Part shown: piece by piece, positions 33,133 to 55,794 of the stretch
Numbering within the stretch: the stretch's first letter is position 1
How the letters are laid out: every line of letters begins with the position of its first letter
Assembly: GCA_019915135.1 (NCBI GenBank)
Contig: JAHLMK010000002.1
Location: forward strand, 2,480,001 to 2,544,000
Length of the DNA stretch: 64,000 nt
Source: Strobilurus pachycystidiatus
Lineage: Eukaryota > Basidiomycota > Agaricomycetes > Agaricales > Physalacriaceae
Direction of reading: 5' to 3'
The notes under the pieces: generated by a model
The model's database searches: none
What the model saw: only the letters and a program-made list of their open reading frames with translations
Told to the model about the DNA's origin: nothing
Made by a program: the position numbers and the translations under genes

Positions 33133-34888
33133 TCAGTGGCGCTGTAAGTGATGTACATGCTTCGAGGCCCTCCTCCAGACTCGGAGTCCGGAAAACCAAA
33201 TCGATGTGACTTTGTGAGCTGTTTCCTGGGCCTGAACATTCGGAGTGGTCTCGGAACTCTTCCGTTTGGTCTCCGATGCAGCATCGGATCCAACGAAAGT
33301 TGAAGTGGGCGAAGGAGAACGGGAGTGGAAGGTGAGGATGGCCTTGATAGCAAGCGCGGTGCACAGTCCGCGATTGCCAATCTTGATTCCGGACGATCCA
33401 TACTTGTAAATCCATCCCATCTCCCATCCACCGTCGTCGCACTGTAGCTCAAGAAGAGCACAGAGATCAACTTCATCCCTCAAACCCACGTACTCGCAAA
33501 CCAAGACGCGCATAGACAGAGCGAGGGAGTCTCCCTGGACACCTATTCGTTCCGCTACGCGCTCCTTCAACAGTGGCTTCAAGCTGTGGTGCAAATCTAC
33601 ATCTCCCGTCTGTTGCAGAAGACGCATGAGGAAGTACAGGAAAGACTCTGCCGTCGCGTAATAACGCGTCCCTTCTAGGTAGGCGCGATTCGCGAGGACG
33701 CTGTGAACCCATTTCAAGGTATACTTGAGGTCACCACCCCGTCCGACGGAATAAAATACATTCAGAACATTCACGCAAACGACAGGGTCAAACCTGGGGC
33801 GATTGTGATCAAAGTATGTCTGAGGGTCAGCTGCTTAGTTGCCTTGTGTATATGAGGATACAAAGATTTGCATACCTGAATAAGACCGTCCGTGTTTAAA
33901 TAGTCGAGCATCTCATCCAGCACGCTTGAGACAATCTGCTTGTCCTTCTGCAGGATCGTTAACCCCAGAGATGTCGTATCAAGATCGTCTGGGAAGTCCT
34001 CTGTAGTTAACTGTACCTTTCCTTGAGGCTGAATGAGTTCTCGTGCAGGAAGGCATGCGCGGCCTCACCCTGAAAGAAATTCCACTTTCCCACGGGCTCT
34101 GTCAGATTCACCAGTGACCTAACAGGATCTGAGTACCTGCCAATAGAGTTTGAGTCGACCGCATACCTATCCGCCGTCACCTCAAGAATTAGAAGTTGAG
34201 CGAAATTCTCCCGCAGCTCAACGCCGCTATCCGTAACCGAATACATCCTCCCAGCGTTGGCCGTCATGAAGCCTTGCCCACGGGCAACAGGGTCTCCCAA
34301 AAGATTGCGAAGACAGCGTTTGACAGTGGCTTTGTCGTCAAACACAATTCCACACATGCCCATGGAGCGGGCAGACAAGACATTGTCGAACTTGTCATCG
34401 ACAAAGATGGCGGAGTACGGATTCGTGCCAGTTTGCTCGAGGACGTGTCTGTAAAACGCGAGATGAGGCTTGCGCTCGCCTAAGCCGCCCGACGTGAACA
34501 CGCGGTCGAAGAGCCGCCAGTCTGCGGGTTTTGCTCGGAGGACCTCGTAGTCTGGGAGTGAGATGTTGGACATCGCATAGACCTTCAGGCGGGGGTCGCC
34601 CGCCTTCAGTTCTCGTATGAAAGCCATCATTTCTGGGTCGGACTGGAGGGAGTCCCGGGCCTGTTCAAAGCCTTTGCAGACTTCCTGTGGGTCAAGGGAA
34701 AACTCGAGCGCCACCCGCTCATAGCAGATCTGCTGCGAAAGCCGGCCTCGCTCGTAGTCTGCCCATGTTGGTGATGAGAGGATGCGCCGGAAGGTTTGAG
34801 ACGATATATTGATGGTCGTATGCGAGGACCATGAGAAGAGGACATCTCCGATGTCGAAGATGATAGTGTCAAAGTGTGGTGGAAGCAT
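33133..34888 (-). CDS. HAD-type class II terpene cyclase, drimane-synthase-like, copy A
   Basis: Exons on the minus strand are 34888-34069, 34000-33876 and 33819-33133 (543 aa). Residues 1-~220 are a haloacid-dehalogenase fold: DIGDV (Asp12, Asp15), YAMSNIS, LGERKPHLAFYRHVL and FVDDKFDNV. The C-terminal half carries D279LDTTS284, the DxDTTS motif of the fungal HAD-like sesquiterpene cyclases (AstC/DrtB type). These protonate farnesyl diphosphate to drimane-type products. LLELQCDDGGWEMGW resembles the QW motif of terpene cyclases. Both active sites appear intact, so the product may be a drimanyl or albicanyl diphosphate or the free alcohol. The start MLPPHFDT is shared with copy B; an in-frame upstream ATG extension is 5' leader, since its protein sequence is not conserved. 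Introns occupy identical positions in both copies. Confidence 0.9.
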
Positions 34889-35345
34889 GGATGAGAGAAG
34901 GGTGTAGGAGAGCACTCCAGATGGGATGACTTGGGGTTGTATGTTTGCGATACTATAAGGATTCAGAATACATATTAGCCGGGTACACTGTATGCCCATT
35001 GCCCACTTTGCATCCGAAATGTGGTCCCACGTCCTCTGCCACCACCAGATCCGGTCTTGAACGGCATCCATGCGCATCTGATGATGGTGCAACAGAAGTG
35101 GCAAAATATTGTCATGAGAAATGTATACGATCGAGCGAAGAGTGAGGGCTAAACCTATCGTGAAGAGTTGCATAGTACTGTAGCCGAGTCGATAAGCGTA
35201 ATGCTGAAAGCGCCACAATGATCACAATGCGGAGCGTTTGACAATGCGTAGAGATGCGCCTGAATAGTAGTTTGTATCCGAGCGCTTGCAAAATGCGATT
35301 GGGACAGGGTATTGAGCGTTGCTGAATCTACGAGTTCGAGTAGGC
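34889..35345. promoter_or_regulatory. Upstream region of cyclase A, homologous to that of copy B
   Basis: Read on the minus strand, this stretch matches DNA upstream of copy B, for example CATTGTCAAACGCTCCG at about 35230-35246 against CATTGTCAAACCCTCCG at 51399 and 50839. It also shares TAGATTCAGCAACGCT at 35315-35330 with 51316. It therefore contains the shared cyclase promoter, interrupted at 35346 by a MITE. Confidence 0.75.
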
Positions 35346-35740
35346 TAGGGCTTAGTTTATAATTATTCCAGCAATTATAAACGGTTTATAGGTTTTTTGG
35401 TCGTCAAAGGTGTTTATAAACCGGTTTACAAACAGTTGGCCGAGATCCCCGGGCGCCAGCGTACACGTCAAAAATCCAGATCCTGGAAGCACCCAAGAAG
35501 CTCTAAAGCCTTCCGCTTCCGGATCCGTCCCACCATCCTTCCAGACGCTTCCTTTGGTCTCGCCACTGTCGTCGTTGCTGAGCACGTCGAGTCCTGCCTC
35601 CACCAGCTTGGGACCCGCCAGGCCTGTTACATAATATAAACATTATAAACATTGGGATCCCGAGGCGACCTGTTTCTAACGTTTAAAAAGGGTCTGTTTC
35701 TAACCCTGTTTACAAACACTCTGCTCTAAACTAAGCCCTA
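35346..35740. mobile_element. 395-bp hAT-type MITE with perfect 8-bp target duplication
   Basis: Inverted ends start TAGGGCTTAGTTTA (14 bp identical). The direct repeat GAGTAGGC flanks the element at 35338-35345 and 35741-35748. The interior has several TTATAAAC and TTTACAAAC subrepeats near the ends. No transposase is present. It is inserted in the region upstream of cyclase A; copy B lacks it. Confidence 0.92.
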
Positions 35741-35748
35741 GAGTAGGC

Positions 35749-35987
35749 AGCTGTAGCTCGACGCACTGGGCTATTTACGCCGAGTGAGGGAATATGTGAG
35801 ATTCTCATGGCCAATGTCGAGGAATCAAGAGGACACCAATTAATGTCACGCACGGTCCAATAACGGTTGCTGTGAATAAAAGGAAGGCAGCCGATTTCAA
35901 ACAAGACCGTCATGAAAGTCGCAAAGCACGGAGATTGGTGAGCATGAGGGATGAGAATGAACGGGTCCAGATACCGTAACAGTGGTA
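35749..35987. other. Remnant of the cyclase/tRNA intergenic region between two insertions
   Basis: On the minus strand this piece aligns with DNA between the tRNA and cyclase B. Shared words include CATGCTCACC, TGCTTTGCGACT and GGTGTCCTCTTGATTC, found near 50562, 50581 and 50676. This shows that the MITE and the 3.27-kb element were inserted into a formerly continuous spacer. Confidence 0.8.
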
Positions 35988-38900
35988 AGGTACTCGACAC
36001 CCATGAGCAACCAACGCCATGTGGCCTTGGTCACGCGTGACAGCCCAGTCCTAATCGGGCCATCAAGTCGCGTCTTCAGCATTCATCGCCTGACTGCACA
36101 AGCTCAGAGACCTATTGAATCGAACTGGCTCCGTAAATCTCTCGAGTATAGCATTAAGATTATGTGTGTGATTTTCTGGTCTATTTAATGCAGCCAACAT
36201 TGTGAAATCTTTTGATTAACATGTATATCAAGCAATACCCCCCTGCTCAAGCTCGTTCATAATGGATTCCGGCAGGACACGATGTCCGCGGTACTTCCTG
36301 GAGGCCCAGGCCGCTTGACGACCATTTAAACCGCGCTCATATGCGTCCACGAAGCGAAAAGCACGAGTGAAGAAGCTGTAGTATGAATTCAGTCACAGTA
36401 TAGCATTCAGGATACAAGAGAGTCTTACCGGCGGATGCTGACAAGCGGAATCTCATCGAGAGCAGCTAAGGTATACTTCTCGAGAAGATCCTCACGTGAT
36501 GACTCTGGGTTGAGACGGTAGAGCCGCTTTGCATAGCCCCAACATTGCTCAATCGGATTGAGTTCACAATGGAACTTCGGCAGGAACAGAATGACAATGC
36601 CCCATTTCTCCATCGCCAGCTCCAGAAGTGACTTACCCTCCGCAAAGTCCGGCTCATTGAAGAGGATCCGTCGCACACAGCACTGTGTTGCACCTGCAGC
36701 GCACTTGAAGGAAGGACACTCTGCCCGTAATCCACTCCGGCCTTCCAGCTCCTCACGGTCATATCCCCGCTCGGCCAAGATCTGAACCATACCCTTGAAC
36801 AACCCAGGAGAGATAGAATCGTCATCCGGCCAATACAAGGACTGAGGCTCTCCGGTATGCGGATTGATAGTGTCCGCCATTTTGATCTTCTCCTTGACGT
36901 ACTTGCCTTTAGCATCATAGACCTGCTTGCCTTCAGCGTCAAGCAGGTTCCGAGCAACTAACCAGTTCTGATCCGACTTCGACTCGTTCTTCGGCATATG
37001 ACGAGCGGAAAGAGCATCATCGGGGCGTTTGCAATGAGTAGTGGCGTTGTCGTAAACAAACACATGCTCGAACTCGGGATATGACTCTGCCAAGATACTG
37101 GCGGCTTCTTCTGCCTGCGAGATCACGTCAGGACAGGTGAAGTAGCCATCACGGTTCTTCCCAGGACGGAAGATGCGACGCGCATTCCGCAAGCCATCCT
37201 TAGACCAAAGCCAGCCAATCTCAGCACTGACAAAGTCCGCAACCATCAAGGAAACACCCTCGCCCTTGCGATAGGGCTTTGCTGGTGCATCCTTGTGTAT
37301 CCACATTTTTCGGCGTCGATCGTGAGCATAGAAAATTGACTCGTCGTGGTACCAGATGATTATGCGCTTTCCGTTGATGAATGTCGGGATTGAAGTGGAA
37401 GTGGAGGGAGCAGTAGCGTCAGAGGGTGTGGTCAAAGAAGCGTCAGGAGAGGTTGCAGGGGAAATAGAAGAGGGTGATGCAGATATGTGCGTCGGAATAG
37501 TGGTGGCCTTCATGGGAATCTCGTTTCCATCACAATCATAAGTTTGGATACGTTCCTTGAGCTATGGTACATTAGCGGGCGTGTTAGACAGTCAACAGAG
37601 ATAAGAACATTACCTTTTTGAGAGCTGGGATATAAATCTTGTCACGGTGGAAAACAACATCTGTGCGCTCATGTCCGTCGACATACTGACCCTTCTTGGC
37701 TTCTTGCCAGCGAAATTCCAGAGAATGAAGATACCGCTCCGCCGTCCTACAGGAGATGGACTTGGTAATCCCAAACTGATCCTTCACGTCAGGCGATGAG
37801 AGAAAGAGTACCAGTTTATCCGCGTTGATGTCGTTTCCAAGCTCCTGCAGGTGTAGTCTGATTGCCTGCGTTAGATCTTCGTTCTCGAGCATTGTTGTGT
37901 TCCAGTATCCGTAAGGGTTGAGCGGGAGGACCTCGCGATCCTCAATGAATGCTCGAACAAGACGACGAAGGATTCGTGCGCAGTAGAGACCTTTACAAAG
38001 GGAAACTGCTGCCTGCAGTGATGATGCGCCCCAATGGCCATATGTCGCAGACAATTTAGTCGTGTAAAAGGAAAGCATAGACCGCATGCCTTCCAGTCGA
38101 TGGCGCAGGAACGGGTCAAGTTGAACGTTGACATACCCGACAGCACGTTTGCCATTGATTGTGCGATGGGGTTTGAGTAACTCCTTCACGGCAGCCAGAG
38201 CATCAAGGGCAAGGCCAATTGTAGGCGCTTCACGGAGGCGGCCATTGCGTCGACGTGCCTGTTCACGAGATTCCGAGGTGGAAGGGGTATCAGCAACAAC
38301 TGGAGACGGGTCCGTGTTGGAGAAGGCAGGGGTAGCAGATGATGGGGACTCCGGGGTGGGATCCACACGTAAATCAGCCTGCTGATCATCAGACATATCC
38401 GACGCGATGGAAGCAGTGTCGGCAAAGGTCTCATCAAGTATGCTGTCCGTCTCAATGAGATAGGGACAGTCAGTTGCGAGTGTGCTGAGGTGACGAACAG
38501 AGCCATCATCAGGGACATCCTCAAGCAGGACAGATGTTGACGGGGAGGAAAAGTGAAAGTGTGCTGGATGGAACGGGCAATCGGGACGCAGATCAACACC
38601 GGGTGCAACAAGCTCAAGGATGGGGAACGTGAGACGCGTCGATGGATTGACTGCGAGAGCAGGGGATGCGACTCCAGATGCAAAGGTCCCAAAGAGCTTC
38701 TTAAACGGGGATGGGATAGTGCTGAACGCGCGCACATGCTTGGGCTGTGCTGGCGTCGTGAAAAAGTCGCTGTCATTGGGTAATGAGGTGATGGCGGGGG
38801 TCTAGAAAGGAATCAGAGCCGCTTAGTGGGGTAAGACGCGACAACGTACATTTTCCTTCTCTGATGCATCTGATTCGGATGTCCGGGGCCTTTTACTCGG

Positions 38901-39256
38901 TGAATTGCGCGGGGATAGCGCGTCTATAGCGTGTTTGAGTGTTTCCTTGACCGCATTCTTTGCACCCGCAAAGTTTAGCGCGCGGGATTTCCTCCAAGAC
39001 TTCTTGTCTCCCATAGTGTGGATGGAAACACAAAGATTACGTGGCTTGACGCACCTTTTTCGATCATCCGAGTGCGCAGATCTCATTTTAGACACAATTT
39101 AGAGAAAATCTTGCAGTCATTTTTATTCTACGCTGATGTGGTACGGAATATGAACGCTTTCCGTCGATTTCACTGTCATTGATGCGGCTGTGTAGGCCCG
39201 ATTAGGCTGTCACGCTTTGCCACATGGCGTTGGTTGCTCATGGGTGTCGAGTACCT
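35988..39256. mobile_element. 3.27-kb TA-flanked DNA transposon with large DDE transposase
   Basis: The ends are inverted repeats beginning AGGTACTCGACACCCATGAG. They are identical for 38 bp and then continue with gaps through GCGTGACAGCC and CTAATCGGGCC. TA dinucleotides flank both ends (35986-35987 and 39257-39258), as in the IS630-Tc1-mariner superfamily. The element holds one four-exon transposase gene filling most of its length. The complete ends, TA duplication and open frame suggest recent activity. Confidence 0.9.
36228..39014 (-). CDS. 877-aa DDE transposase (IS630/Tc1-mariner-like catalytic core)
   Basis: Exons on the minus strand are 39014-38850, 38801-37614, 37561-36429 and 36375-36228. 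The N-terminal ~450 residues are unlike Tc1: basic start MGDKKSWRKSR, a Ser/Pro-rich region, then an ordered part with GYVNVQLDPFLRHRLEGM. They include a helix-turn-helix-like region (KSISCRTAERYLHSLEFRWQ). The catalytic core follows with WYHDESIFYAHD (first Asp), VFVYDNATTHCKRPDDAL (second Asp) and FHCELNPIEQCWGYAKR (third acidic residue). A conserved tail GRQAAWASRKYRGHRVLP ends the protein. The core and the TA target site fit the IS630-Tc1-mariner superfamily, but the protein is over twice the usual size. All three introns (48-53 nt) keep the frame. A start at 39095 would add 27 residues. Confidence 0.88.
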
Positions 39257-39349
39257 TAAGAAGAAGAGAAACAGGCACTTGCACCTGGAGACGGGCCTGA
39301 TCTGCCGATCGAACCTCAGAACCTATAGGGCTGTACGCGCTATGTTTTC

Positions 39350-39421
39350 AGCAGCATGGCGCAGTGGTAGCGCGCGGGGCCCATAACCCCGAGGTCACTT
39401 GATCGAAACAAGTTGCTGCTA
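39350..39421 (+). tRNA. Initiator tRNA-Met (CAT)
   Basis: The 72-nt gene folds as a cloverleaf: acceptor AGCAGCA (39350-39356) pairs with TGCTGCT (39414-39420), discriminator A39421. The anticodon arm is GGGG-CCCATAA-CCCC with anticodon CAT. Initiator features are the A1-T72 end pair, consecutive G:C pairs closing the anticodon loop, and ATCGAAA instead of TTC in the T loop. No intron is present. A second identical gene lies at 50338-50409. Confidence 0.95.
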
Positions 39422-39446
39422 CTAATTCTACTTCAGTACCGTCAAC

Positions 39447-39452
39447 TTTTTT
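39447..39452 (+). terminator. Pol III T-run downstream of tRNA-Met
   Basis: Six consecutive T lie 25 nt after the tRNA 3' end, a standard RNA polymerase III terminator. Confidence 0.7.
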
Positions 39453-39824
39453 GCTTCCTTCGTATGAATCTGCATTTTGATTATTATTTCTCGAATCTCA
39501 TTGCTTCCTCAGATGACAGTCTACAGATCTTGACTCGTGCTGAAGCCTGAATTTCTTCAACTCTGCATTCTTCAACGTCGTCCAGCGCCACTTGTTCCTG
39601 GTCGATCGAAATAGGGTTAGGGCTGTTGTGATCGCCTTGTGGCAATCAACTCTTTCCTGACAGTGACCATCATGCTCCCGGTGAGTCCAACTCGTTGCTG
39701 GCCCAATGCCCGTGCTCAGTCGTTGCTAGTAAACACCATCTACGCTTTCGACTTCCACCTTACCACCGGCAACCTCCACGCAGTCCTCGCCACTCAGGGA
39801 CACCGTACCATCATATCGACCAGC

Positions 39825-42045
39825 ATGGATCCAACACGCTCAAAACCGAGGAGAATGCCCACCACGTTGACGCTAAAGCAGCGCCTTGCCGCTCTCTCCA
39901 CTGCACCCTCTTCCCCGACCAGCTACAGCCAGCAGCCATCGCCGGAAGTGGAATCACCCAAGAGGAGGAGTTTTTTCAACACACCGTGGAACAACAAGTC
40001 TCGGACTTCGGTCGCGGACGGAAACAGCTTTGAGCTCGGAAAGGTGCAGGAGGTTATGGCCAAGCTCATATTCCAGGCCGGCGTCGACTTTGAGTACGTC
40101 GTTCCAAAGCTTTGTCTGAACTCAAGCTGACCTGCAATTGATTAGGACGCGCCCAATGTGAGCCAACCCACCACCTTGCTTCTTTGCTCATGCCTCGAAA
40201 GGGTCGTCCTCAATGCCTCTGCACTGCCAGATCCCAGGGATGTCAACTATGATCTGCTCCTATCTCGTGTGCTGGCCTACCTCAATCTCTACGGTACGTG
40301 CTTTATCCTTCGTTTCTCATTTGATCCCTAACGCAGGTGCAGTCGAGGCGGATTACACGGTCGTCTTCTTTGCCGCCGGGAGTAAACACACACCGGGATG
40401 GAATTGGGTCTGGAAAGCGTATCGGGGGCTGAACAGGAATTACAGGAAGAACTTGAAGCGACTGGTGTGTACTCTGAGCTTTATCTCTGAGCCCCGTCTG
40501 ACCGCTCGGCAGTTCATAGTGCATTCCAACTTTTTCTCCAAGAGTTCGTTTACCCATCCCTGTCGCAGTGCTCCAATTCACGTCACTTGCAGTGCTCTTC
40601 TCCCTTGCCGGCGCGATAATAAGTCCCAAGTTCTTTCGCAAGATCACATACATCGATACCCTCTCCAATCTTGCCGCGCAAGTGCCAATAACACAGATAG
40701 ATATTCCCCCAGCTGTCTACCAGTGCGTCCCTCATCTTCGAAATTTATGACTCAACCGTTGTTAAATTTTTGTTAGGGAAAACGGTAAACACGAGAGGAA
40801 GATAATCCTCCCTATACCCGTATCCTCTTCGACATTCGGCGTTCCACTTGCAGACCTCATGGGCTCCTCGGGCGAGAACTCTGCCCTCCCTCGGCCTGTT
40901 AAGGACTCCATACAATTCATACGAGAGGCTGGACTGTATGAGGATGGTCTTTTCCGGCGCTCACCTTCGTCAGCACTGCTTCGCGCGGTACAGGATGCGT
41001 ACGATCGAGGAAACGTGGTCAACCTCGAGACCTTTGGCGACCCGCACCTAGCGGCGGTGTTGATCAAGAAGTTCCTGAGGGACTTGCCAGAGCCGGTGTT
41101 TGGGGACGAGACGTATGCGGTGATACGCAGGTGTCCGGAGGTGAAGAGCGATATGAACGACATGGCCGCAGTGCGGTATGTGCGAGAGGTCATATTGCCA
41201 GAGCTCGAACCGTGCATGTACATTCTATTGAGTGCGGTGCTTCGTCAGTCATTATCAACGTTCTGCGCCCGTATACCGCTCAACCATCCTACACAGATCT
41301 CATGCACGAAGTTTCATTGAGAGCGGACTCGAACAGAATGGACGCACACAATCTCGCTGTCGTGCTCACGCCCAATCTCGTCAAGTCGAACAACCCCATC
41401 AGGGATGTCATGATGTGCGGCGTTCCCGGCGCACCACCGCTCTATCCCTCTTCCGCGCCCACGCCCACCATCTCCAACAGAGCGGCTCTGTCTGAGAACA
41501 AGACCACTCTAGGCAGTGTGATCAAACTCTCGATACAGCGGTACTACGAGATATTTGACGAGGTGCGGGACCGCAGTGAGGCCCTTCCGCCGAAGCCGTC
41601 CAATCGCATCAGCACGGGGAGCTTTGGTGGGGACCCGCGGTACGTTCTCGGCGAGGACGAGGAGGACTCCATCGACGATGGGATGCTCGTCATGCCCCTC
41701 GGGTCCTCCCCGCACGGGCACCACGGGCACGCCAACAACCCGTCCATATCTGGCTCCGGCCCGCCGAGCGCGTGGGGCGCGAACAACGGGTTCAAGCCGC
41801 GCCACCGGAGCACGCTGTCGAACGGGTCGTCGATTCCTTCTTCTTCCCAAGACGCCAATAAGCCACGCTCGACGATCTCTATTGAGAGCTCGGGCGGGCC
41901 GGGGCGGAAGGGCTCGATCTCGGTGGGGAGGGGGACGGTGCGGAATGGGAAGAGCGCGGGGGCGGGGGTGGAGGCGATTGGGATTACGGCGGAGGGGTTC
42001 TTTAGTGCCCCGGCGAATGCGCCGCCTGTTCCTCCGAGGCCGTAG
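39825..42045 (+). CDS. CRAL-TRIO (Sec14-like) plus RhoGAP domain protein, Ecm25/ARHGAP1-like
   Basis: Eight exons: 39825-40093, 40146-40157 (12 nt), 40202-40293, 40343-40464, 40513-40543, 40593-40722, 40777-41243 and 41297-42045 (623 aa). A Ser/Pro-rich N terminus precedes a lipid-binding CRAL-TRIO/BCH-like domain: DVNYDLLLSRVLAYL, DYTVVFFAAG, PGWNWVWKAYRGL, IVHSNFFSKMLFSL. The RhoGAP domain follows, with GVPL, LYEDGLFRRS (arginine finger near Arg279), FGDPHLAAVLIKKFLRDLPEPVF and NRMDAHNLAVVLTPNLV. The C-terminal tail is Ser/Gly rich and ends PPVPPRP, a likely SH3 ligand. It should switch off Rho-family GTPases at membranes in polarity or wall control. The intron before VEADYT was set at 40294-40342 because of branch-point spacing. 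Upstream in-frame ATGs at 39639 and 39669 are possible starts. Confidence 0.9.
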
Positions 42046-45535: not shown

Positions 45536-46981
45536 TCGTTAATGGTATGGATCCACTCTTCACCAATCTGTCGCCTCACCATAGTATCCAGAATTTGTCG
45601 AGAGCGAGTCAGACGCGCTTAGGTACGTCAAGGCCGCTCTCAAGCCAATGATCAAGATGGATGCCGACAAGCTCATCGTGTTGGTGCGCAGACCCTAAAC
45701 GTATACGGTGTTCCTTGTTCTCAATCCCACATAGCTGGTGTCATCGAAATCAAAATCCACAAGTACTGCCCAGGGAGACGAGCACCACGACGAAGAAGAA
45801 CGAGCCTCGACAAGGACGAGAACGGAGACCACGACGAGGACGAGAACGGAGACCACGACGAGGACGAGAACGGAGACCACGACGAGGCCGAGCACAAGCA
45901 CCACAACGAGGACGAGAACGAGCACCCCACGAGGATTGACTACCACATTGAGGATGAGGATGAGGACCACGACAAGGACTCCGACGAGGACTGCGATGAG
46001 GATCAGTATCACTGTATCAAGGATTAGCTTCCTGGCGGCGGCAAACTGTCATCCTATGCACTACAGCCATCATGATGACGACGATCCCATTCGGATGACC
46101 ACCACGACCAGAGGACCGCGACGACTGCTTCGCTCAAGCGCTTAGCTCTGGTATTCTCAGTTTGTACGTGCTTTCATCGATTATTGTATTCTCTCAATTT
46201 ATCATTCTTCAAGCTGTCTGTGCCTTCTGTATTCGGACATCAGCCATGCACCGAATGATCATACCTGACTTACTGCAGACTCCGTACCAGTATCTTTTAG
46301 TACCAAAGACATGCATACTGATGCATTTGCTTCATCGGAGTACTGGTTCTCGAGGATTGATGCATTTTAAGATGTGGGGTAGGCTGGAATCGCAAGGGAT
46401 CAAGGTCGAACATCTGTACACACCGATTCAATTTCACTTTGCTCAAAATGGTTATAGGAAGTAACGTTCGCACACACCCCGCGCGCCATGTTGTTCATGA
46501 GGCCCCCCGGATATGTCAGTATAGCAGTTTCTGGTCCGATGTTTACAGAAGGCACAATGCACACTCCCGATTCTCACAATTGCGCCGTCGTTGATCATGC
46601 AGAACGCAACGTGTGGCGGCACTAGTACTATAGCGACGTACGGAGCAATGTGCCGCCCTCTGAGATAATGGCGACTAATGAATGTGGTCCTGTGATTCGA
46701 AATCATGCTGGCCGACTACGATGACTACTGGTCGAACATGCTGTGTGGAGGATTGTGGATAAGTGTTTGATAGAATGCATGCATATAGTAGGAACATGGG
46801 TCCGGTCGGTCGGTTTGGGGTAACATCGCAAGCCGGCCCTTCCAGCTCCATGCAGTGGCCCGGACTCTGCCGCATGAAGTGGCGGCCTATACTGTTCATA
46901 TGTAAATGGAGAGGAATACCAGTGCGCGCCATGCACCATGGCTGTAGGCCCTGGATATGTGCCCACGTCCTAAGTTACACA
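45536..46981. other. Intergenic/degraded region with acidic minisatellite
   Basis: It contains the 24-bp minisatellite at 45807-45883 and no intact gene. A stretch at about 45586-45690 could encode FVESESDALRYVKAALKPMI but leads into the repeat and then stops; it may be an unrelated gene fragment. From 46150 to 46981 only overlapping short frames occur. Confidence 0.45.
45807..45883 (+). repeat. 24-bp minisatellite, about three copies
   Basis: The unit GACGAGGACGAGAACGGAGACCAC repeats about three times and decays into related GACGAGGACGAGAACGAGCAC DNA to about 45930. In one frame it encodes DEDENGDH repeats, in another RTRTETTT. The 24-bp period keeps any frame open, so the long frames across it are not evidence of a gene. 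Confidence 0.85.
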
Positions 46982-48044: not shown

Positions 48045-48431
48045 AATGTGAGTGCAAGTGGGGGTGAGGTTAGCCTGGAAACCCGGCTCTAGTAGCGAAG
48101 ACAGTCGTTCGCTGTATAGAGGGTGAGGTGATAAGAGCAAGTACGCCCACGTGATGGGCACTCACACCAAACACTGACAGTACCCCTGTCACGCATTCGA
48201 ATCTCGGCAAGTCTGTTATGTACGCTTGGATATTGGAATGAAATTTCGTGGGGGTCTAATGTATTGACTTCACTTCGACGACGTGATTAGACCGGTCCAA
48301 GCAATTCAAGAATCAAGGCAACTCGATCTCACACGATATTCGAGGACCTCGGCTGCTTGAACGACAATTTCACCCGACACTCTTTCCACTGGGAAAGAGA
48401 CTCGAGTCAGACTCAAGACCTTAGACGGACG
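48045..48431. other. Intergenic region left of the transposon cluster
   Basis: It holds the presumed promoter of the hypothetical gene; nothing else was recognised. Confidence 0.45.
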
Positions 48432-48439
48432 TCGGAGGT

Positions 48440-48896
48440 TAGGGTGGCGCAGTAAACCCTAGGTTTTGATACACCTAGGGTTTACTGCGGTTATTAACGG
48501 TATTGACACGGTATCGAAACCTTGGGGGGTAGGTTTGAAGGTTTCGATACCGGCACATGACCATTTCACGTGACTGTGCTGGGGCAGTGGCGCGCGCCGC
48601 CGCGCCTGCCCACTTGTCAAGCTCTCTGAGGCTTAGATGAGGGAGGATGAGCGTGAGAGTGTGATATCAGACATGAAGCATTGAAGCACTACCCTCTCAC
48701 TGTGAGAGGCCAGAACATATTAGACAGTAACACGCGAGAAGTGGTTTGGGTGGCCAGCGGAAATTGCGCCACAAAGAATCAATCATGTGATCAATTCACA
48801 TGCCAGTATTGATACCGTTTCAAACCTACGGAGCCTCCGGTGGGGAGGTATCGATACCGTTACTAACACCCCCCGGAGGTTTACTGCGCCACCCTA
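48440..48896. mobile_element. 457-bp hAT-type MITE with perfect 8-bp target duplication
   Basis: Inverted ends TAGGGTGGCGCAGTAAACC are identical for 19 bp. Internal inverted homology continues as TAACGGTAT..ACGGTATCGA and GGTTTGAA blocks. The direct repeat TCGGAGGT flanks it at 48432-48439 and 48897-48904. No coding capacity is present. TAGGG ends with an 8-bp duplication are typical of hAT elements; the sequence differs from the MITE at 35346 apart from the first five bases. Confidence 0.92.
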
Positions 48897-48908
48897 TCGG
48901 AGGTTTTA

Positions 48909-49054
48909 TTGCAATTTTCATAATTGATCGCACTTGCAAAAAAAAAAAGTTTCAGTCGGCTAGGAGGCCTATTGAGTGAGCATTGACCGACGTTGACCTT
49001 TGCCAAACTCAAACTTTTTTATTTTGCGAGTGCAATCAATTATGAAAATTGCAA
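48909..49054. mobile_element. Stowaway-like MITE (TA-flanked, ~146 bp)
   Basis: The ends are inverted repeats TTGCAATTTTCATAATTGAT, continuing with few mismatches through GCACTTGCAAAA and AAAAAGTTT for about 45 bp. TA lies at 48907-48908 and 49055-49056. It could fold into a long hairpin. Ends and target site fit a non-autonomous Tc1/mariner (Stowaway) element. It abuts the hAT MITE's right target duplication. Confidence 0.8.
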
Positions 49055-49086
49055 TAAATTAAAATTTTTCATTCAAAAACCGACTA

Positions 49087-50303
49087 CTCGTTATAGGCAG
49101 AAGTAAGTACCCCGGGCCCGATCATCATTGTAGCCCGACGAATTTTGCATCCTCAATGGTATACAATGGAATAAATATTGAAGGAACTATTTAGTAGCGT
49201 GTATGACCTCCATCTGCATCTACGACAGCCTGAATTACGCGAGGGAGACGGCTGATGTAATGGTTTAACTCCTCAATGCTAATCTCATCCCATAGCTTGC
49301 AAAGTGTGCTACACAGGTCATTGTAAGACGCAGGCTGCCGGGAAAGGGCCCGTAGACGCTTCTTGAGAAGATTCCACATGCATTCAATTGGGTTGCAGTC
49401 AGGAGAGGACGGAGGATGGGGGAAGAGTGGGATGTTGTTCTCGTCAAACCAGCGCTTGGTGACTTTGCTCCGATGCGACGGTGCACCGTCTTGCTGGAAC
49501 ACAAAATTTGGCCGCTCTCTGACCATTTCAGCATGAAAAGACGCCAGAATGGGATCAAGCACCTGTTCTCGATACCGTGTGCTGTCCATTCCCCCTCCCT
49601 TGCCTCCCGGATACTCCAACACAACGAGTGGTCCCTTCTTGTCCATCATGACCACACTCCAGACCATGCAGCGAATCGGGTTTTGAGGAAGGTTCGGTAC
49701 ACAACACTCGTCCGCCAACTCCTCACCCGGCTCGCGACTGACCCAAATCCGACCCTTTCCGTCACCAAGGACAACGTACGCCTCATCAGAGAATGCCACG
49801 TTCCTCCACATCCTGGATGTCCACGGCTTGTGCTCACAGGCCCAGCGGAGACGCTTAGTCTTTGTCGGAGGTTTCAGAAGAGGAACCTTGCGAGCGACGC
49901 GTCTGTGGATGCCGCATTCAGCGCAAACACGTGCAATGGTGCGTGTGCTGACTGCTGGCTGCATCTCGTTGCCAATGTCCCGAAAGGGCTTCCTCCGATT
50001 GGCCTTCACCCTCGAAACAACATCCGCCTTCTTTTTTGAGTCCAGGATGGGCGGTCGACCGGATCTGGCGCGGTTCTTGGTCGAGCCAGTTGAGCGGTAT
50101 TTTCGGCTGATTTTCTTGGCTGAGTTGTAGGAGATGTCTTCGGCGTTGGCGGCGTCTACGAGTGACTGGCCAGCGGCGACACGTCCCATGAGTCGGTTTT
50201 TACGAGGTGAGTCAATGTGAGAGCCGCGAGGTACTGTTTTCGCCATGGTGGTTGACGTTGAGGCGCGATCGGGCCCGGGGTACTTACTTCTGCCTATAAC
50301 GAG
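49087..50303. mobile_element. Complete 1.2-kb Tc1 element
   Basis: The inverted ends CTCGTTATAGGCAGAAGTAA continue identically through GTACCCCGGGCCCGATC, about 37 bp on each side. TA flanks at 49085-49086 and 50304-50305. One intronless transposase gene fills the interior. Identical ends and an intact gene point to very recent insertion. The right end lies directly against the T-run that terminates the neighbouring tRNA gene. Confidence 0.95.
49191..50246 (-). CDS. Tc1-family transposase (DD34E)
   Basis: An intronless 351-aa protein starts at ATG 50246, inside the element; a longer upstream frame crosses the inverted repeat and is not used. The N-terminal paired-like helix-turn-helix region has RLMGRVAAGQSLVDAANAE and the linker motif GRPP. 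The catalytic core has VAFSDEAYVVL, VFQQDGAPSH and SPDCNPIECMW. Exactly 34 residues separate the second Asp from the Glu, which defines the DD34E Tc1 family. No frameshift or stop occurs. The enzyme would cut its own inverted repeats and insert at TA. Confidence 0.95.
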   Translation of the reverse strand: MAKTVPRGSHIDSPRKNRLMGRVAAGQSLVDAANAEDISYNSAKKISRKYRSTGSTKNRARSGRPPILDSKKKADVVSRVKANRRKPFRDIGNEMQPAVSTRTIARVCAECGIHRRVARKVPLLKPPTKTKRLRWACEHKPWTSRMWRNVAFSDEAYVVLGDGKGRIWVSREPGEELADECCVPNLPQNPIRCMVWSVVMMDKKGPLVVLEYPGGKGGGMDSTRYREQVLDPILASFHAEMVRERPNFVFQQDGAPSHRSKVTKRWFDENNIPLFPHPPSSPDCNPIECMWNLLKKRLRALSRQPASYNDLCSTLCKLWDEISIEELNHYISRLPRVIQAVVDADGGHTRY

Positions 50304-50304
50304 T

Positions 50305-50313
50305 AAAAAAAAA
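50305..50313 (-). terminator. Pol III T-run downstream of tRNA-Met (minus strand)
   Basis: A run of nine A on the + strand (nine T in transcript sense) starts 24 nt past the tRNA 3' end. It shares its first base with the Tc1 target TA. Confidence 0.7.
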
Positions 50314-50337
50314 GTATCTTCCAAAGAATCCGAATAT

Positions 50338-50409
50338 TAGCAGCAACTTGTTTCGATCAAGTGACCTCGGGGTTATGGGCCCCGCGCGCTACCACTGCGC
50401 CATGCTGCT
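50338..50409 (-). tRNA. Initiator tRNA-Met (CAT), second copy
   Basis: The reverse complement is identical over 72 nt to the gene at 39350-39421, with the same acceptor, CAT anticodon and initiator-type T loop. Its 5' side faces terpene cyclase B, just as the first copy's 5' side faces cyclase A. Confidence 0.95.
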
Positions 50410-50539
50410 GAGAATCAGATGCGTAGTGCTCCTCCTCGTCTGACTTCCATGGGACAAAACACGCAGAGGCATCGATCCGGCCCTGGTTTCAACTGCTCCT
50501 CTTCCTCTTACCACTACTTTAGGGTATCAACAAACGGAA

Positions 50540-51690
50540 AAGGACCCGTTTAACTTCACCCCCATGCTCACCGACTTCCATGCTTTGCGACTGAAATGAC
50601 GCTCCCGTCCGGACTGGGCTGCATCTTTTTTCTTCTGAGCCACCCTGAAGTTGGATGAACTGGACGTGTTCAGAGGTGTCCTCTTGATTCTTCGCCGTTG
50701 ACCGTGGAGACTGAATCAGCAAAAACTTGAAAATCCCAGTTACGTCTGCTTGAACAACTAGTATATTCAGCAACGCTCGGCATCGCCGTCCCGATCGCGT
50801 TTTGCAAGAGCCCGCGAACGACCGAGGCGCATATCTACGCATTGTCAAACCCTCCGAATCAAGATTATGGCGCTTATTAGTCTCAGGTTTCCCCTGATCC
50901 TTCCAGTATCATCTCGGCTTATTCAAGTTTCACGGTAGGTGTAGCCGTCCCTCTCTGCTCGCATACATTTGTCTCAACGTTTGTTTGGCCACTTTCTGTC
51001 ACGACAGCATCAAATGTGTACCGAGCCGCCCCAAACCGGACATGGCTGTAGCAAAGGACGTCGGACGACGTTTCGGACCCGCCGGGAGGCACTTCGTTTA
51101 TCTTCATCCCCATGCTCAACTATCTCTTTGCTCTGCGACTGAAATGACGGTCACGTCTGGACTGGGCTGCATCTCTATTCCTCTCAGCCACGCTGAACAT
51201 GCTCAGAAGGGTCCTCTTGATTCTTCGACCTTGACCATGGGGACTGACATCAGATACTTCCTCACACAGCAAGAAAGGCCTAATGGGGCGGGTTACATCT
51301 GCTTGTGCATCTCATAGATTCAGCAACGCTTAACACCCTGTCCCGATCGCGTCTTGCAAGAACCCGCATACGAGACACTCACCAGGCGCTGATCTGCGCA
51401 TTGTCAAACCCTCCGAATTATAATCATTGTGGTGCTATGTTGCGTTATCAGCCGTCGTCCTCACTCTTCTCTGGTCCTTCCAATATTGCGCGTAGCATCC
51501 CGGCTATTCAAAACCTCACGATAGGTGTAGCCGTCACTCTCGCTTGTATACACTTAACATAACGTTGGCTTCCCAGTTTCTGTTTGCGCCACCATCAACG
51601 GCGCATCGATGACACCCGAAACCGTGAGTGGTGGTAGCAGAAGACGATGTTCCGGAGGTCGGGTGGGCATACAGTGTCCCCGGCCAGTAG
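50540..51690 (+). repeat. Tandem duplication of the cyclase B upstream region (~0.55-kb period)
   Basis: The segment from about 50545 to 51090 recurs from about 51098 to 51680. Shared runs include CTTTGCGACTGAAATGACG (50582, 51129), GGACTGGGCTGCATCT, CCTCTTGATTCTTCG, CCCGATCGCGT.TTGCAAGA, GCATTGTCAAACCCTCCGAA (50838, 51398) and GGTGTAGCCGTC (50937, 51525). Divergence is moderate, so it is not recent. The stretch holds no gene and is presumed promoter. Confidence 0.88.
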
Positions 51691-51772
51691 GGACTATGAA
51701 CCCTATAAGTATCGCAAAGATACAACTCCGAGTCATACCATCTGGACTGCTCTCCTACACCTTCTCTCCTCC

Positions 51773-53437
51773 ATGCTTCCACCACACTTTGACACCCTCA
51801 TCTTCGACATCGGAGATGTCCTCGTCTCTTGGTCCTCAGATGTGGCCACCAAAATATCATCTCAGACCTTCCGGCGCATTCTCTCCTCGCCCATATGGGC
51901 AGACTACGAGCGGGGCCGATTTTCGGAGCAGACCTGCTATGAGCGGGTGGGGCTTGAGTTCTCTCTCGACCCAAAAGAAGTCTTCAAGGACTTTGAACTG
52001 GCCCGGGACTCCCTCCAGTCCGATCCAGAAATGATGGCCTTCATCCGAGAACTGAAGACGGGCGACCCCCGCCTGAAGGTCTATGCGATGTCCAACATCT
52101 CGCTACCGGACTACGAGGTCCTCCGAACAAAGCCCGCAGACTGGGGGCTCTTCGACCGCGTGTTCACGTCGTGCGGCTTAGGCGAGCGCAAGCCTCATCT
52201 CGCGTTTTACAGACACGTCCTCGAGCAGACTGGCGCGAATCCGTACTCCGCCATCTTTGTTGACGACAAGTTCGACAATGTCTTGTCTGCTCGCTCGATG
52301 GGAATGCGTGGGATCGTGTTTGACGACAAAGCCAATGTCAAACGCTATCTTCGTAACCTTCTGGGAGACCCCGTTGCCCGTGGGCAAAGCTTCATGTCGA
52401 GCAACGCTGGGAGGATGCATTCGGTTACGAATAGCGGCGTAGAGCTGCGGGAGAATTTCTCTCAACTCCTCATTCTTGAGGCGATGGCGGATAGGTATGC
52501 GGTCAACGTAAACGCTTTCCACATGTACTCACATCCTACTAGGTCACTGGTGAATTTGACAGAGCCCACGGGCAAGTGGAATTTCTTTCAGGGTAAGCTG
52601 CGCATGCCTTCATCTACCTGCACGACAACTCATTCGGCCACCAGGAAAGGGACAGTTGACTACAGAGGACTACCCCAACGACTTTGATACGACATCTCTG
52701 GGATTGACCATCATAAAGCAGGACAAACACGTTGTCTCGGGCGTGCTGGATGACATGCTCGAGTATCTGGACAACGACGGTGTTATTCAGGTATGCAGAA
52801 TCTTTTACATCCTCTCATATACAGAAGACAACTGAGCTGACCTTGCAAACAGACATATTTTGATCACAATCGCCCCAGGTTTGACCCAGTCGTCTGCGTG
52901 AATGTTCTGGGTCTGTTCTACTCCGTCAACCGGGGTGGCGACCTCAAGTACACCTTGCAATGGGTTCACAGCGTCCTGGAGAATCGCGCCTACCTAGAAG
53001 GGACGCGTTATTACGCCACCGCAGAGTCTTTCCTGTACTTCCTCATGCGTCTCCTGCAACAGACAGGGGATGTAGACTTGTCCCATCGCTTGAAGCCACT
53101 GCTGAAGGAACGCGTAGCGGAACGCATCGGCGCCCCGGGAGACTCCCTCGCTCTGGCTATGCGCGTCCTGGTCTGCGAGTACGTGGGACTGAGGGATGAC
53201 GTCGATCTCCGCGCTCTTCTTGAGCTACAGTGCGAAGACGGCGGATGGGAGATGGGATGGGTTTACAGGTATGGGGTCTCTGGAATCAAGATCGGCAATC
53301 GTGGGCTGTGCACCGCGCTTGCTGTTAACGCCATCCTCACTTTCCACTCGCATTCTCCTCCACCCCTCCTCACTTCCACCCTGGTTGGATCCGATGCTGA
53401 ACCGGAGACCGAACAGAAAGTCTCCGAGACCGCTTAG
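51773..53437 (+). CDS. HAD-type class II terpene cyclase, drimane-synthase-like, copy B
   Basis: Exons are 51773-52592, 52666-52790 and 52853-53437 (509 aa). Exons 1 and 2 match copy A in length (820 and 125 nt) and intron phase. The HAD motifs DIGDV, MSNIS, LGERKPHLAFYRHVL and FVDDKFDNV and the cyclase motif D279FDTTS284 are intact. LLELQCEDGGWEMGW is present. The C terminus is shorter than copy A by 34 residues, because the codon after SETA is TAG where copy A has CCG, although homologous DNA continues. Whether the lost tail matters is unknown, since it lies beyond the recognisable cyclase motifs. The promoter differs from copy A's by a tandem duplication. Confidence 0.9.
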
Positions 53438-55794
53438 AATGGTCAGGCCCACAAATGTACATAGATCGAGCTTTCCGGACTTTAGAGGAGGGCATCGAGC
53501 CATTTAGATGATAGATCGTTTATAGCGCCACTCAAGTATAGAGCTCCCTTCCCTCCACTGTCCCAATAACCAGGCGCCTTGAAAACTTTACTTAGTTCGC
53601 GAACGGCTAGACTCTAGGGGAAGTGTTATATAAGGTAACCAGATGTGAGGCAATAGACCTCGCACCTAGCAGTTCATGCAGTAGAAAGAGCAGACAAGTA
53701 CTAGTCAACCGCCAACGCGTGCGCGTCGAGAACTTCTCTTCGACGCGTCCATTATCCCGCACCAAACAGCTACACTCTGCGACAGAATATTTCTTTGCCC
53801 CCCGGACCACCCGCCATCCCTTCCGGGGTATCGCGTTAGCACGCTTGGTATGCTTGGGCTTTCTCTGGAACTTCAAGATCGTATTGATGTGGTCTTGACA
53901 TATAAAACGCGCCTGGTTGAAGACAGATCGCGCAGCTCGCCACGGACTTCAATTTTCAAATATCAGGTTTATGCCAGGCCCCGGCGCGCGCTAGCACTGC
54001 GCCATGCTGCTATACTGGACCACTCATGTCTATCCTAGGGGGCAGACCTCGAGCTCTGAGTTCAAGTCTCACTGTAATGTCTGCACTGGCACGATAGTAA
54101 GTTCGTCCTCCGCTTCAAGATTCGGGACGTTGTTGATCGAATAATCCATGCCCCGCAACTTGAGGTTCATCCTGCCAGTGAATGCTTCCTTTCCAAAATC
54201 CCTATTGAGTGCGCACTGACGCCTGGTCCTCTCTCCGATCTTGTGTCGCTAGATCACTTTGTTGAACGCATAATCCAGTCGCTGTTAACTTCCTCGGACC
54301 TCAACTTCCTCTTTACTCCCTTCTTCCCTCCCTCGGATCAGTCATTCATGGCTACAAGCAACTTCTTCTATGCACATCATTATGGTCTTTGAGCGGCTAC
54401 ACCTCCAAAGACTGAATAGCCTCGTTGATACCAGAGCGATACAGTACTTGCGGCTGCCAAACGATGCACGGCGTCCGTGGCGTCATCATCGCTACTGTGT
54501 ATGTAGTACCCTGGCCACGGACAGCCATTGACGTCTTCCCATGTGTGTGGCGTTATACATGACGAGGCAGCTCACACGCATCCACCATGACCTCGTTTGT
54601 TTGGTTGAAACTTGAATGCGTGGGAGGGGTGGCGTGCGTATGTATGTGTATGGTAACATTTGGCTTGAAGCTTCGATCTCGGACAGACTCTGCCGGGGAC
54701 CTACAACTGTCAACAGCTGGTTTCACGGTAGGCATGACCAAATTCAGATTGAAACAAAGTCGGCGTTTTTTGCTTCGACCATCACAAGTCCACGTCTCGC
54801 ATACTCTAGTGTCTGGCTCGGTGATGTATCACACACTGTCATCTCTTGACGGTGGACGCTACTATAGTGGATAGGCCACGACGCGTTCATCAGTCCCGTG
54901 CAACATGCATCATGCATGGCATTGGCACACTTCTTCGTGCATGACACTCTCTCGGATCATCCGCCTCGTGCTGGCCATGCTATGAAAATCCTCTGGACCG
55001 GGTCACGCTGCGGTGTCGCGACTCGGAACTCTTGGTCTCATGTATGCTACTTACCAGTGGTAGTAAATCTCAAGCCTCGCCGAATCATCGATGAGACGGA
55101 AATGTGGACGCCCGCTCAGCGCTCAGCACTGCACTTAATTTTACGTTTGTATCATGTGTCGTACCGGTGACCCAGCTAGACGCGTCTGTCCGTCTGTCTA
55201 GCCAGAGTCACGAACACAAGACGGGAAAGGCGTACCGAGGTCTGTGAATGTGCCCTAGACATGCACTTTCACACCTCCGTGCTTCGGGAGATCCACGAGT
55301 GTGTCGGGATCGGCGACCTACATTGCAGCATGCGGGGACACGATTAATATCCTAGCATTCCCAGAGCTGTGTGCTGTGGGCTGAGTGCTCACAGGTGATT
55401 GCGCTGATGAAGTACGTCGGCCCGGAGATAGACATCAGCACCCTCGAATTTTCAAGGCTACACTTGCTGAGAGGAGTTAACCTCGGGATAGCCTCCGGGT
55501 GCAGGGTCCCGATCGAGACCGCGTAACGAAACGAAAAAGCCCGAAAAGAAGGAGGGAAGGCAGATCGCACCGAAATGAAAAAAAACAAGGAAACAGAGCC
55601 ACATTTGCTTACCTTGCCTCATGTTCATCATGCGAGTGTGTGAAGCTAATGTACAAATTGATTGAGTTCCTGTCTAGAGTGCCATATTATACCATGTGTA
55701 GCCGAGAAAAGAGTAGGAAAGATGCAGAGCAAAGAGTATAATGATATGATAGAGGATGGAGGAAGTCAGACTATGAGACCCATGCGCAGGAAGA
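53438..55794. other. Intergenic region with a tRNA fragment, no gene
   Basis: The first ~90 bp are homologous to the end of cyclase A. A broken initiator-tRNA fragment lies at 53966-54011. The remaining frames overlap in several phases with no family similarity or splice logic. No transposon ends were found. Confidence 0.5.
53966..54011 (-). pseudogene. Truncated initiator tRNA-Met fragment
   Basis: On the minus strand it reads AGCAGCATGGCGCAGTGCTA then GCGCGC, the same as the 5' half of the two intact tRNA genes apart from GTGCTA for GTGGTA. It then becomes irregular (CCGGGGCCTGGCATAAACC) in the anticodon arm and stops. The T arm and acceptor 3' strand are missing, so it cannot give a tRNA. 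Confidence 0.8.

What the first reader, a model, noticed from the sequence alone, without database searches (positions are those of the whole stretch)
33133..53530. Inverted segmental duplication of an initiator tRNA-Met plus terpene-cyclase block
Two blocks of tRNA-Met(i), spacer and HAD-type cyclase face each other in opposite orientation. The block extends past the genes: minus-strand DNA at 35749-35987 shares CATGCTCACC, TGCTTTGCGACT and GGTGTCCTCTTGATTC with 50560-50690. The DNA next to cyclase A matches that next to cyclase B (TAGATTCAGCAACGCT). The tRNAs are identical over 72 nt, and in both blocks the 5' side of the tRNA faces the cyclase. Removing the two transposons from block A (about 3.67 kb with target duplications) and one tandem copy from block B leaves a spacer of about 0.8 kb in each. 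A tRNA gene travelling with a terpene-cyclase gene may mark a recombination-prone unit.
Basis: partly seen in the sequence, partly recalled or inferred. Interest (0 to 1): 0.88.

Follow-up and report, generated by a model that had tools for sequence, protein, structure and literature searches.

The report
Duplicated tRNA-cyclase block beside tRNA-seeking transposons
A mushroom chromosome carries an old mirror-image copy of a block holding a start-tRNA gene and a terpene-making enzyme gene, and the edge of the copied block lies where, in this genome, a kind of small DNA transposon repeatedly lands: just past the ends of tRNA genes, facing the same way.

Summary
33073-35334 (minus) and 51311-53594 (plus) align at 81%; with two transposons (3674 bp) left out of block A, homology runs on to the 5' end of the initiator tRNA. 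Both cyclase genes look intact (85-86% identical; Ks about 0.3, Ka/Ks 0.24-0.30) and resemble AstC. tRNA identity proves nothing: four of six initiator genes are identical. No homology was found on the tRNAs' 3' side, so the block's inner edge is about the tRNA 3' end. A truncated initiator tRNA lies 390 bp past block B.

Following that edge led further. Two families of hAT-like MITEs sit just past tRNA genes in the tRNA's orientation: 20 of 20 copies tested, 19 with a tRNA above Rfam's cut-off, median distance 58 bp; 0 of 12 flanks of another MITE family. tRNA B carries one at 48440-48896, 68 bp away once later inserts are discounted. Six searches of an open-access library showed me no DNA transposon with this placement. 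That such insertions caused the duplication is a guess.

The parts
33133..34888 (-). Cyclase A, HAD-type class II terpene cyclase, 534 aa, introns 34166-34119, 34068-34022, 33875-33820
   Evidence: AstC 22tz E=3.2e-122; DLDTT at residue 270
33073..35334 (-). Block A main duplicated stretch, 81% identical to 51311-53594
35346..35740 (.). hAT-like MITE in block A spacer, 8-bp TSD GAGTAGGC (35338-35345 and 35741-35748); a family different from the tRNA-associated ones
   Evidence: other genome copies
35806..35987 (-). Block A spacer piece, homologous to 50542-50706 and onward
35988..39256 (.). Tc1/mariner-like element in block A spacer, TA target duplication, DDE_3 ORF 36425-37513(-)
39259..39349 (+). 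Block A spacer next to the tRNA 5' end, homologous to the stretch from 50410 on
39350..39421 (+). Initiator tRNA-Met A
48440..48896 (-). Family-2 hAT-like MITE 3' of tRNA B, same orientation, TSD TCGGAGGT on both sides, 68 bp from the tRNA when the two later inserts are not counted
48905..49058 (.). 154-bp element with terminal inverted repeats, 3' of tRNA B
   Evidence: I9
49085..50305 (-). Tc1-like element 3' of tRNA B, 39-bp perfect TIRs, transposase in ORF 49191-50324
50338..50409 (-). Initiator tRNA-Met B
50410..51772 (+). Block B spacer with tandem duplication (50547-51060 and 51095-51646)
51311..53594 (+). Block B main duplicated stretch
51773..53437 (+). Cyclase B, 500 aa, introns 52495-52542, 52593-52644, 52791-52852
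53716..53871 (.). Dispersed repeat remnant, 70-74% to five other places
53985..54011 (-). 5' part of initiator tRNA-Met (27 nt, 1 mismatch; gapped similarity to nt 43)
   Evidence: the 27-nt pattern with up to 3 mismatches found 7 places, 6 of them whole genes

Best explanation
The two blocks are an old inverted segmental duplication of a unit of about 3.2 kb: initiator tRNA-Met, about 0.8 kb shared spacer and a three-intron HAD-type terpene cyclase gene. The tRNA was already beside the cyclase before the duplication, and both cyclases stayed under purifying selection. The block's inner edge lies at about the tRNA 3' end; the stretch just past tRNA genes is where two hAT-like MITE families insert in this genome (20 of 20 tested copies), in the tRNA's orientation, and tRNA B carries such a copy. 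Inferred, not shown: the transposase is guided there by the Pol III machinery, as Pol III-targeted retrotransposons are, and this flank is therefore often broken and rewritten. Guess, about 0.2: a break left there by an older excision was repaired by copying the tRNA-cyclase arm in inverted orientation. The confidence below is for the duplication and the MITE placement, not for that guess.
For: Continuous alignment; introns kept, so DNA-mediated; dS 0.28-0.33 with dN 0.078-0.084 against 68-74% identity among the spacer copies, compatible with one age; no detectable homology 3' of the tRNAs; A and B sisters, SH-aLRT 100, C17 next, 99 (28 of the 120 listed homologues used). MITEs: 15 of 69 listed tRNAs have a listed copy within 600 bp, 14 on the 3' side (12 with the nearest copy at 13-159 bp, two at 514-515), all in the tRNA's orientation; random placement mean 0.25, largest 3 in 1000. 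All 20 further copies have a tRNA 29-154 bp before them on the same strand, 19 above Rfam's gathering score and one (L069) at 24.3 bits. Matched control: 12 flanks of 8 copies of the block A MITE family, same length and scan, 0 tRNAs. A run of four or more T lies between tRNA and element in 20 of 20; shuffled flanks give 9.0 of 20 on average, 15 at most in 2000. Exact 8-bp TSDs in 10 of 13 copies read at both ends.
Against: The MITE beside tRNA B is 92.6% identical over 135 nt to another copy, so it looks younger than the duplication and cannot have caused it. tRNA A has no such MITE. Three other close inverted tRNA pairs (Phe, Ile, Thr) shared only the tRNA and MITE copies at E<=1e-8; but A and B showed only the tRNA in that same test, so it would have missed a block like theirs. 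The transposase is only weakly recognised (DUF659, 30.1 bits against a cut-off of 34.7). By the listing-only measure the control is weaker: 17 of 81 family copies against 0 of 26 other repeats near a listed tRNA, Fisher p 0.011. In 4 of the 20 flanks another TAGGG lies before the element, in some of them a piece of an earlier element, so the distance is not always that of a first insertion.
Confidence: 0.8

Rival explanations
1. On the cause: plain inverted segmental duplication by replication template switching near a fork stalled at the tRNA gene; the transposons came later and have nothing to do with it.
For: tRNA genes are tied to breakpoints, gene-gain sites and duplication endpoints in yeast (PMC2675101, passages). 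The tandem duplication in B's spacer is about the age of the inverted one, as a multi-step switch could give. The MITE at B looks younger.
Against: No direct trace of template switching was looked for or seen. Does not explain the truncated tRNA at 53985.
Confidence: 0.45
2. On the cause: recombination between tRNA copies. An ancestral array of tRNA-cyclase units was rearranged through tRNA sequence, leaving the truncated tRNA at 53985-54011 as a scar.
For: The truncated tRNA is the only such 5' fragment found (27-nt pattern, up to 3 mismatches), lies 390 bp from block B and is on tRNA B's strand.
Against: Neither side of it resembles the spacer or the tRNA flanks beyond chance, apart from one weak value (5' flank against C1, z 2.3, 4 of 200), and no further cyclase lies beside it. 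With one mismatch in 27 nt it may be younger than the duplication. A dispersed repeat remnant lies nearby.
Confidence: 0.15
3. The two tRNA-cyclase pairs arose independently: tRNA genes came to lie beside two cyclase paralogues by chance.
For: tRNA gene identity alone is uninformative.
Against: Spacer homology up to the tRNA, same orientation in both blocks, only six initiator genes found in 51.8 Mb.
Confidence: 0.02
4. The MITE-tRNA association reflects loss of copies elsewhere or co-duplication of tRNA plus MITE rather than targeted insertion.
For: Only surviving copies are seen; lower-scoring copies were not tested.
Against: Several tRNA types, differing target duplications, narrow spacing and one orientation in 20 of 20; another hAT-like MITE family shows none in 12 flanks.
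Confidence: 0.12

Closest known systems
AstC / AncC / DrtB-type HAD-like terpene cyclases
   Same: HAD domain plus terpene cyclase domain; AstC (22tz) E=3.2e-122 over residues 7-468 of A; DxDTT and DIGDV motifs. AncC is called a basidiomycete (+)-albicanol synthase in PMC13244436 (passages).
   Different: Product unknown; two copies beside initiator tRNAs; A and B lack the C-terminal tail seen in C17 and Mucidula.
TRE3 and Skipper-2 retrotransposons of Dictyostelium
   Same: [quoted passage not shown] Skipper-2 also downstream (PMC5911963, passages).
   Different: Those are retrotransposons in amoebae; here elements with terminal inverted repeats and 8-bp TSDs in a mushroom. TRE3 is said to use the internal or an external B box; a simple B-box pattern occurred in 0 of 20 flanks here.
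Ty3 and other tRNA-targeted retrotransposons of yeasts
   Same: Position-specific insertion near tRNA genes.
   Different: LTR retrotransposons on the upstream side. [quoted passage not shown]
Dada DNA transposons
   Same: DNA transposons aimed at tRNA or snRNA genes (PMC3706591, passages).
   Different: Dada goes inside the gene, each family to its own RNA gene, TSD 6-7 bp, no terminal inverted repeats in the U6 and U1 families; here outside the gene, several tRNA types per family, TIRs, 8-bp TSD.
tRNA-associated breakpoints and gene-gain sites in yeast
   Same: tRNA genes about three times more often than chance at breakpoints and gene-gain sites (PMC2675101, passages).
   Different: Here a single inverted duplication that carries the tRNA itself.

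Membership tests
Segmental duplication (DNA-mediated) | Homology includes introns and non-coding flanks | tested here: met
Segmental duplication (DNA-mediated) | Homology covers the tRNA's 3' flank as well (not required; it locates the edge) | tested here: not met
   local z -0.7 and 0.9; best test a 60-nt global alignment, z 2.1, 10 of 300 shuffles as high
HAD-type class II terpene cyclase | Nearly full-length similarity to a characterised member, and DxDTT motif | tested here: met
HAD-type class II terpene cyclase | Makes a drimane-type product | not testable with these tools
   no enzyme assay
Initiator tRNA-Met | tRNA fold with CAT anticodon | tested here: met
Initiator tRNA-Met | Eukaryotic initiator marks (A1-U72, GATCGAAAC T loop; recalled) | tested here: met
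   sequences printed; the list of marks is recalled
hAT superfamily (the MITEs) | 8-bp target site duplication and short terminal inverted repeats | tested here: met
   10 of 13 copies exact; L050, L037b and L044b not
hAT superfamily (the MITEs) | hAT-type transposase in a full-length relative with the same ends | tested here: inconclusive
   L072: DUF659 at 30.1 bits, below the 34.7 cut-off; 7 relatives found, 6 with PF04937; no hAT dimerisation domain reported
Dada | Insertion inside the RNA gene, TSD 6-7 bp | tested here: not met
Pol III-targeted element | Regular position relative to tRNA genes of several types | tested here: met
   control
Pol III-targeted element | Contact with TFIIIB, TFIIIC or Pol III | not testable with these tools
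   needs an experiment

The most novel reading that the evidence does not exclude
A hAT-like cut-and-paste DNA transposon, with a full-length form carrying a Ulp1-type protease gene and a DUF659-like transposase gene, integrates at a regular distance past tRNA genes of many types, in one orientation, in a mushroom: a DNA-transposon route to the Pol III safe haven, on the side that a 2018 review knew only for retrotransposons of Dictyostelium. Breaks it leaves there seed local rearrangements such as the tRNA-cyclase inverted duplication. (The probability is for the targeting; for the causal link to the duplication about 0.2.)
Probability: 0.65. Interest if true: 0.78.

Novelty: new variant of a known kind. 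Interest (0 to 1): 0.6.

Why it matters
The duplication itself is an ordinary kind of event, made notable by a tRNA gene at its edge. The wider result would matter more: if hAT-like elements really seek the downstream side of tRNA genes, Pol III targeting has arisen in cut-and-paste DNA transposons in a way unlike Dada. The transposase could reveal a new tether to the Pol III machinery, and it might be a lead for gene delivery into a harmless site. It would also give a concrete reason why tRNA 3' flanks can become rearrangement edges in this fungus.

Tried and rejected
1. tRNA identity as evidence of duplication: rejected, five of six initiator genes are identical or differ by one base. 2. A third decayed cyclase unit to the right of the truncated tRNA: relaxed tblastn and spacer comparison showed none. 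3. C17 cyclase as a source with a tRNA: none in L020-L022 by ARAGORN or Rfam with lax filters; no flank homology. 4. The tRNA-associated repeats were first noted as solo LTRs; their ends and target duplications showed elements with terminal inverted repeats. 5. ARAGORN reported nothing in six of the twenty flanks, and the gathering-threshold Rfam scan listed 11 of 20; the scan with laxer filters found the other nine, eight above the cut-off and L069 below it. 6. Sub-threshold Rfam matches at 53800-54400 looked like chance. 7. A PDB search with the Ulp1-like ORF found nothing. 8. Six literature searches: no title or abstract start in the listings named a DNA transposon placed downstream of tRNA genes; I saw passages of two further listed papers with many tRNA mentions and found no such statement in them (PMC9584435; PMC6875170). 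Passages of PMC2715888 report tRNA genes next to horizontally acquired yeast genes. Only an open-access library was searched.

Counts and selection: I used 39 of the 82 rows and 42 of the 55 rows, dropping short pieces and cross-strand self-matches; contig lengths in its random placement were taken as the largest listed coordinate. The 20 flanks came from the upper part of the two lists (17 family-2 copies, one array led by family 1, two family-1 copies), leaving out copies already beside a listed tRNA and two arrays (C1:5945787 and C9:672161); lower-scoring copies were not tested. The 26 control repeats were 18 of 25 rows, 5 of 6 and 3, without the window itself and without second pieces of one copy; the 12 control flanks are 8 upstream and 4 downstream sides of 8 copies. 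The tRNA list is incomplete (63 of 1931 candidates scored), and five of its tRNAs lie on C33, probably the mitochondrial genome. The homologue list shows 120 of 549.
Full report
What was claimed.

Check. The window is C2:2480001-2544000 of a 51.8-Mb genome in 61 contigs. ARAGORN and Rfam give two tRNA-Met. Blocks 33073-35334(-) and 51311-53594(+) align at 81%. With them left out, the spacers are homologous up to the tRNA: global score 6.0 against -23.4 (sd 4.9) for shuffles, 0 of 1000 as high. The 58 nt nearest the tRNA alone are weaker (z 3.2; 7 of 2556 window stretches as high). On the 3' side nothing clear was found (best z 2.1). The tRNAs are identical, but so are others: of six initiator genes four are identical over 72 nt.

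The genes. Each cyclase has three introns and an open frame. A and B are 85% identical over 498 residues; dN 0.078-0.084, dS 0.28-0.33. Of 128 near-invariant columns in 120 homologues, A departs at 5, B at 7 and C17 at 3, and the DxDTT motif is kept. The closest solved structure by sequence is AstC. A third cyclase lies on C17, dS 0.91-0.96 to A and B, with no tRNA in 24 kb around it. In a tree of 31 rows (these three and 28 of the 120 listed homologues) A and B are sisters (SH-aLRT 100), C17 joins them (99), then Mucidula and Hymenopellis (99).

History. The promoter repeat in B (copy1-copy2 74%) is about as old as the A/B split (A-copy2 72%, A-copy1 68%). That the Tc1 and MITE inserts are later is inferred from their absence in the other block. 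A truncated initiator tRNA, 27 nt with one mismatch, lies at 53985-54011; the 27-nt 5' pattern with up to three mismatches finds this and the six genes; other parts of the tRNA were not searched as fragments. Its flanks match neither block, and a dispersed repeat remnant lies 113 bp away.

Where the evidence led. To ask whether tRNA-bearing duplications are common I fetched 20 stretches holding other tRNAs and compared them. Like tRNAs shared only the tRNA itself and two repeat families, but A and B also showed only the tRNA in this test, so it could not answer the question. The two families lay on the 3' side of tRNA genes of different types. They are not LTRs: their ends are inverted repeats and they are flanked by 8-bp duplications, exact in 7 of 10 copies and in three more. 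Of 69 listed tRNAs, 15 have a copy within 600 bp, 14 on the 3' side, all in the tRNA's orientation; random placement gives 0.25 on average and 3 at most in 1000. The one 5' case (C11) is, by its coordinates, a fragment of an insertion that lies 3' of the neighbouring tRNA.

Test. I took 20 further copies with no listed tRNA near and read about 420 bp before each. A tRNA lies there in 20 of 20, on the element's strand: 19 above Rfam's gathering score and L069 at 24.3 bits. Distance 29-154 bp, median 58. A run of four or more T lies between tRNA and element in 20 of 20; shuffled flanks give 9.0 on average and 15 at most in 2000, so the elements appear to land beyond the terminator. A simple B-box pattern occurred in none of these flanks. 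The 8 bases before the elements show no evident common motif. In 4 flanks another TAGGG lies before the element, in some of them a piece of an earlier element, as if sites were used again.

Controls. With the same read length and scan, 12 flanks of 8 copies of the block A MITE family, also with 8-bp TSD, hold no tRNA by Rfam or ARAGORN. By listing alone, 17 of 81 family copies and 0 of 26 other repeat copies lie near a listed tRNA, Fisher p 0.011.

Full-length form. L072 holds a tRNA-Arg, a family-2 MITE beginning 31 bp after it, and, inside that MITE, a 5.1-kb element with family-1 ends and target duplication GCAGTAAA. It encodes a Ulp1/C48-type ORF (PF02902, E=1.6e-4) and a multi-exon gene with a weak DUF659 match (30.1 bits, cut-off 34.7), with relatives in Pluteus, Pholiota, Agaricus, Marasmius and Hymenopellis. 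That DUF659 belongs to hAT-type transposases is recalled. That this element moves the MITEs is inferred from the shared ends.

Back to the window. The only family-2 ends in 64 kb are those of 48440-48896, on tRNA B's 3' side and strand, with exact duplication TCGGAGGT. Not counting the Tc1 and the 154-bp element that lie between, it starts 68 bp from the tRNA, as elsewhere. No family-1 end with up to 3 mismatches is in the window. So the inner edge of the duplicated block lies where this genome takes transposon insertions. The copy now there looks younger than the duplication, so it is not the cause; an older one may have been.

Known relatives. TRE3 of Dictyostelium has nearly the same geometry (40-150 bp downstream, same orientation) but is a retrotransposon, and the review of which I saw passages says that downstream insertion of retrotransposons is found only in dictyostelids (PMC5911963). 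Dada DNA transposons go into the RNA genes (PMC3706591, passages). In yeast, tRNA genes are enriched at breakpoints and gene-gain sites (PMC2675101, passages). Six searches of the open-access library listed no paper whose title or abstract start names a DNA transposon placed downstream of tRNA genes; papers outside that library were not seen.

Verdict. The duplication is real, old and ordinary in kind; the tRNA was part of it. The tRNA-3'-directed hAT-like MITEs are the more interesting finding.

Noticed in passing
Genome-wide; window 48440-48896; loci L036, L037, L039, L044, L047, L048, L050, L052-L072: Two families of hAT-like MITEs placed just past tRNA genes in one orientation (20 of 20 further copies tested); see main report.
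   Followed up: yes
53985-54011 (-): Truncated initiator tRNA, the only such 5' fragment found in the genome with up to 3 mismatches; origin unexplained.
   Followed up: partly
L072:440-5563: 5.1-kb element with family-1 ends nested in a family-2 MITE, with a Ulp1-like ORF and a DUF659-like gene.
   Followed up: partly
C2:2461711, 2519350, 2530338 (L007 and window): Three of the six initiator tRNA genes lie within 69 kb of each other; the one at C2:2461711 shows no shared flank with the other two.
   Followed up: partly
L033 (C33:132000-141000): Eight tRNAs on one strand within 5 kb, one with anticodon TCA; the 207-kb contig C33 is probably the mitochondrial genome (inference).
   Followed up: no
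11656-13677 (-): ORF with a Transposase_21 (tnp2) match.
   Followed up: no
45805-46014: Imperfect tandem repeat with 24-nt period.
   Followed up: no
50547-51646: Tandem duplication of the stretch before cyclase B, absent from A, about as old as the inverted duplication.
   Followed up: yes
C17:395520-397148 (L020): Third HAD-type cyclase paralogue, 75% identical, with a C-terminal tail like that of Mucidula which A and B lack.
   Followed up: partly
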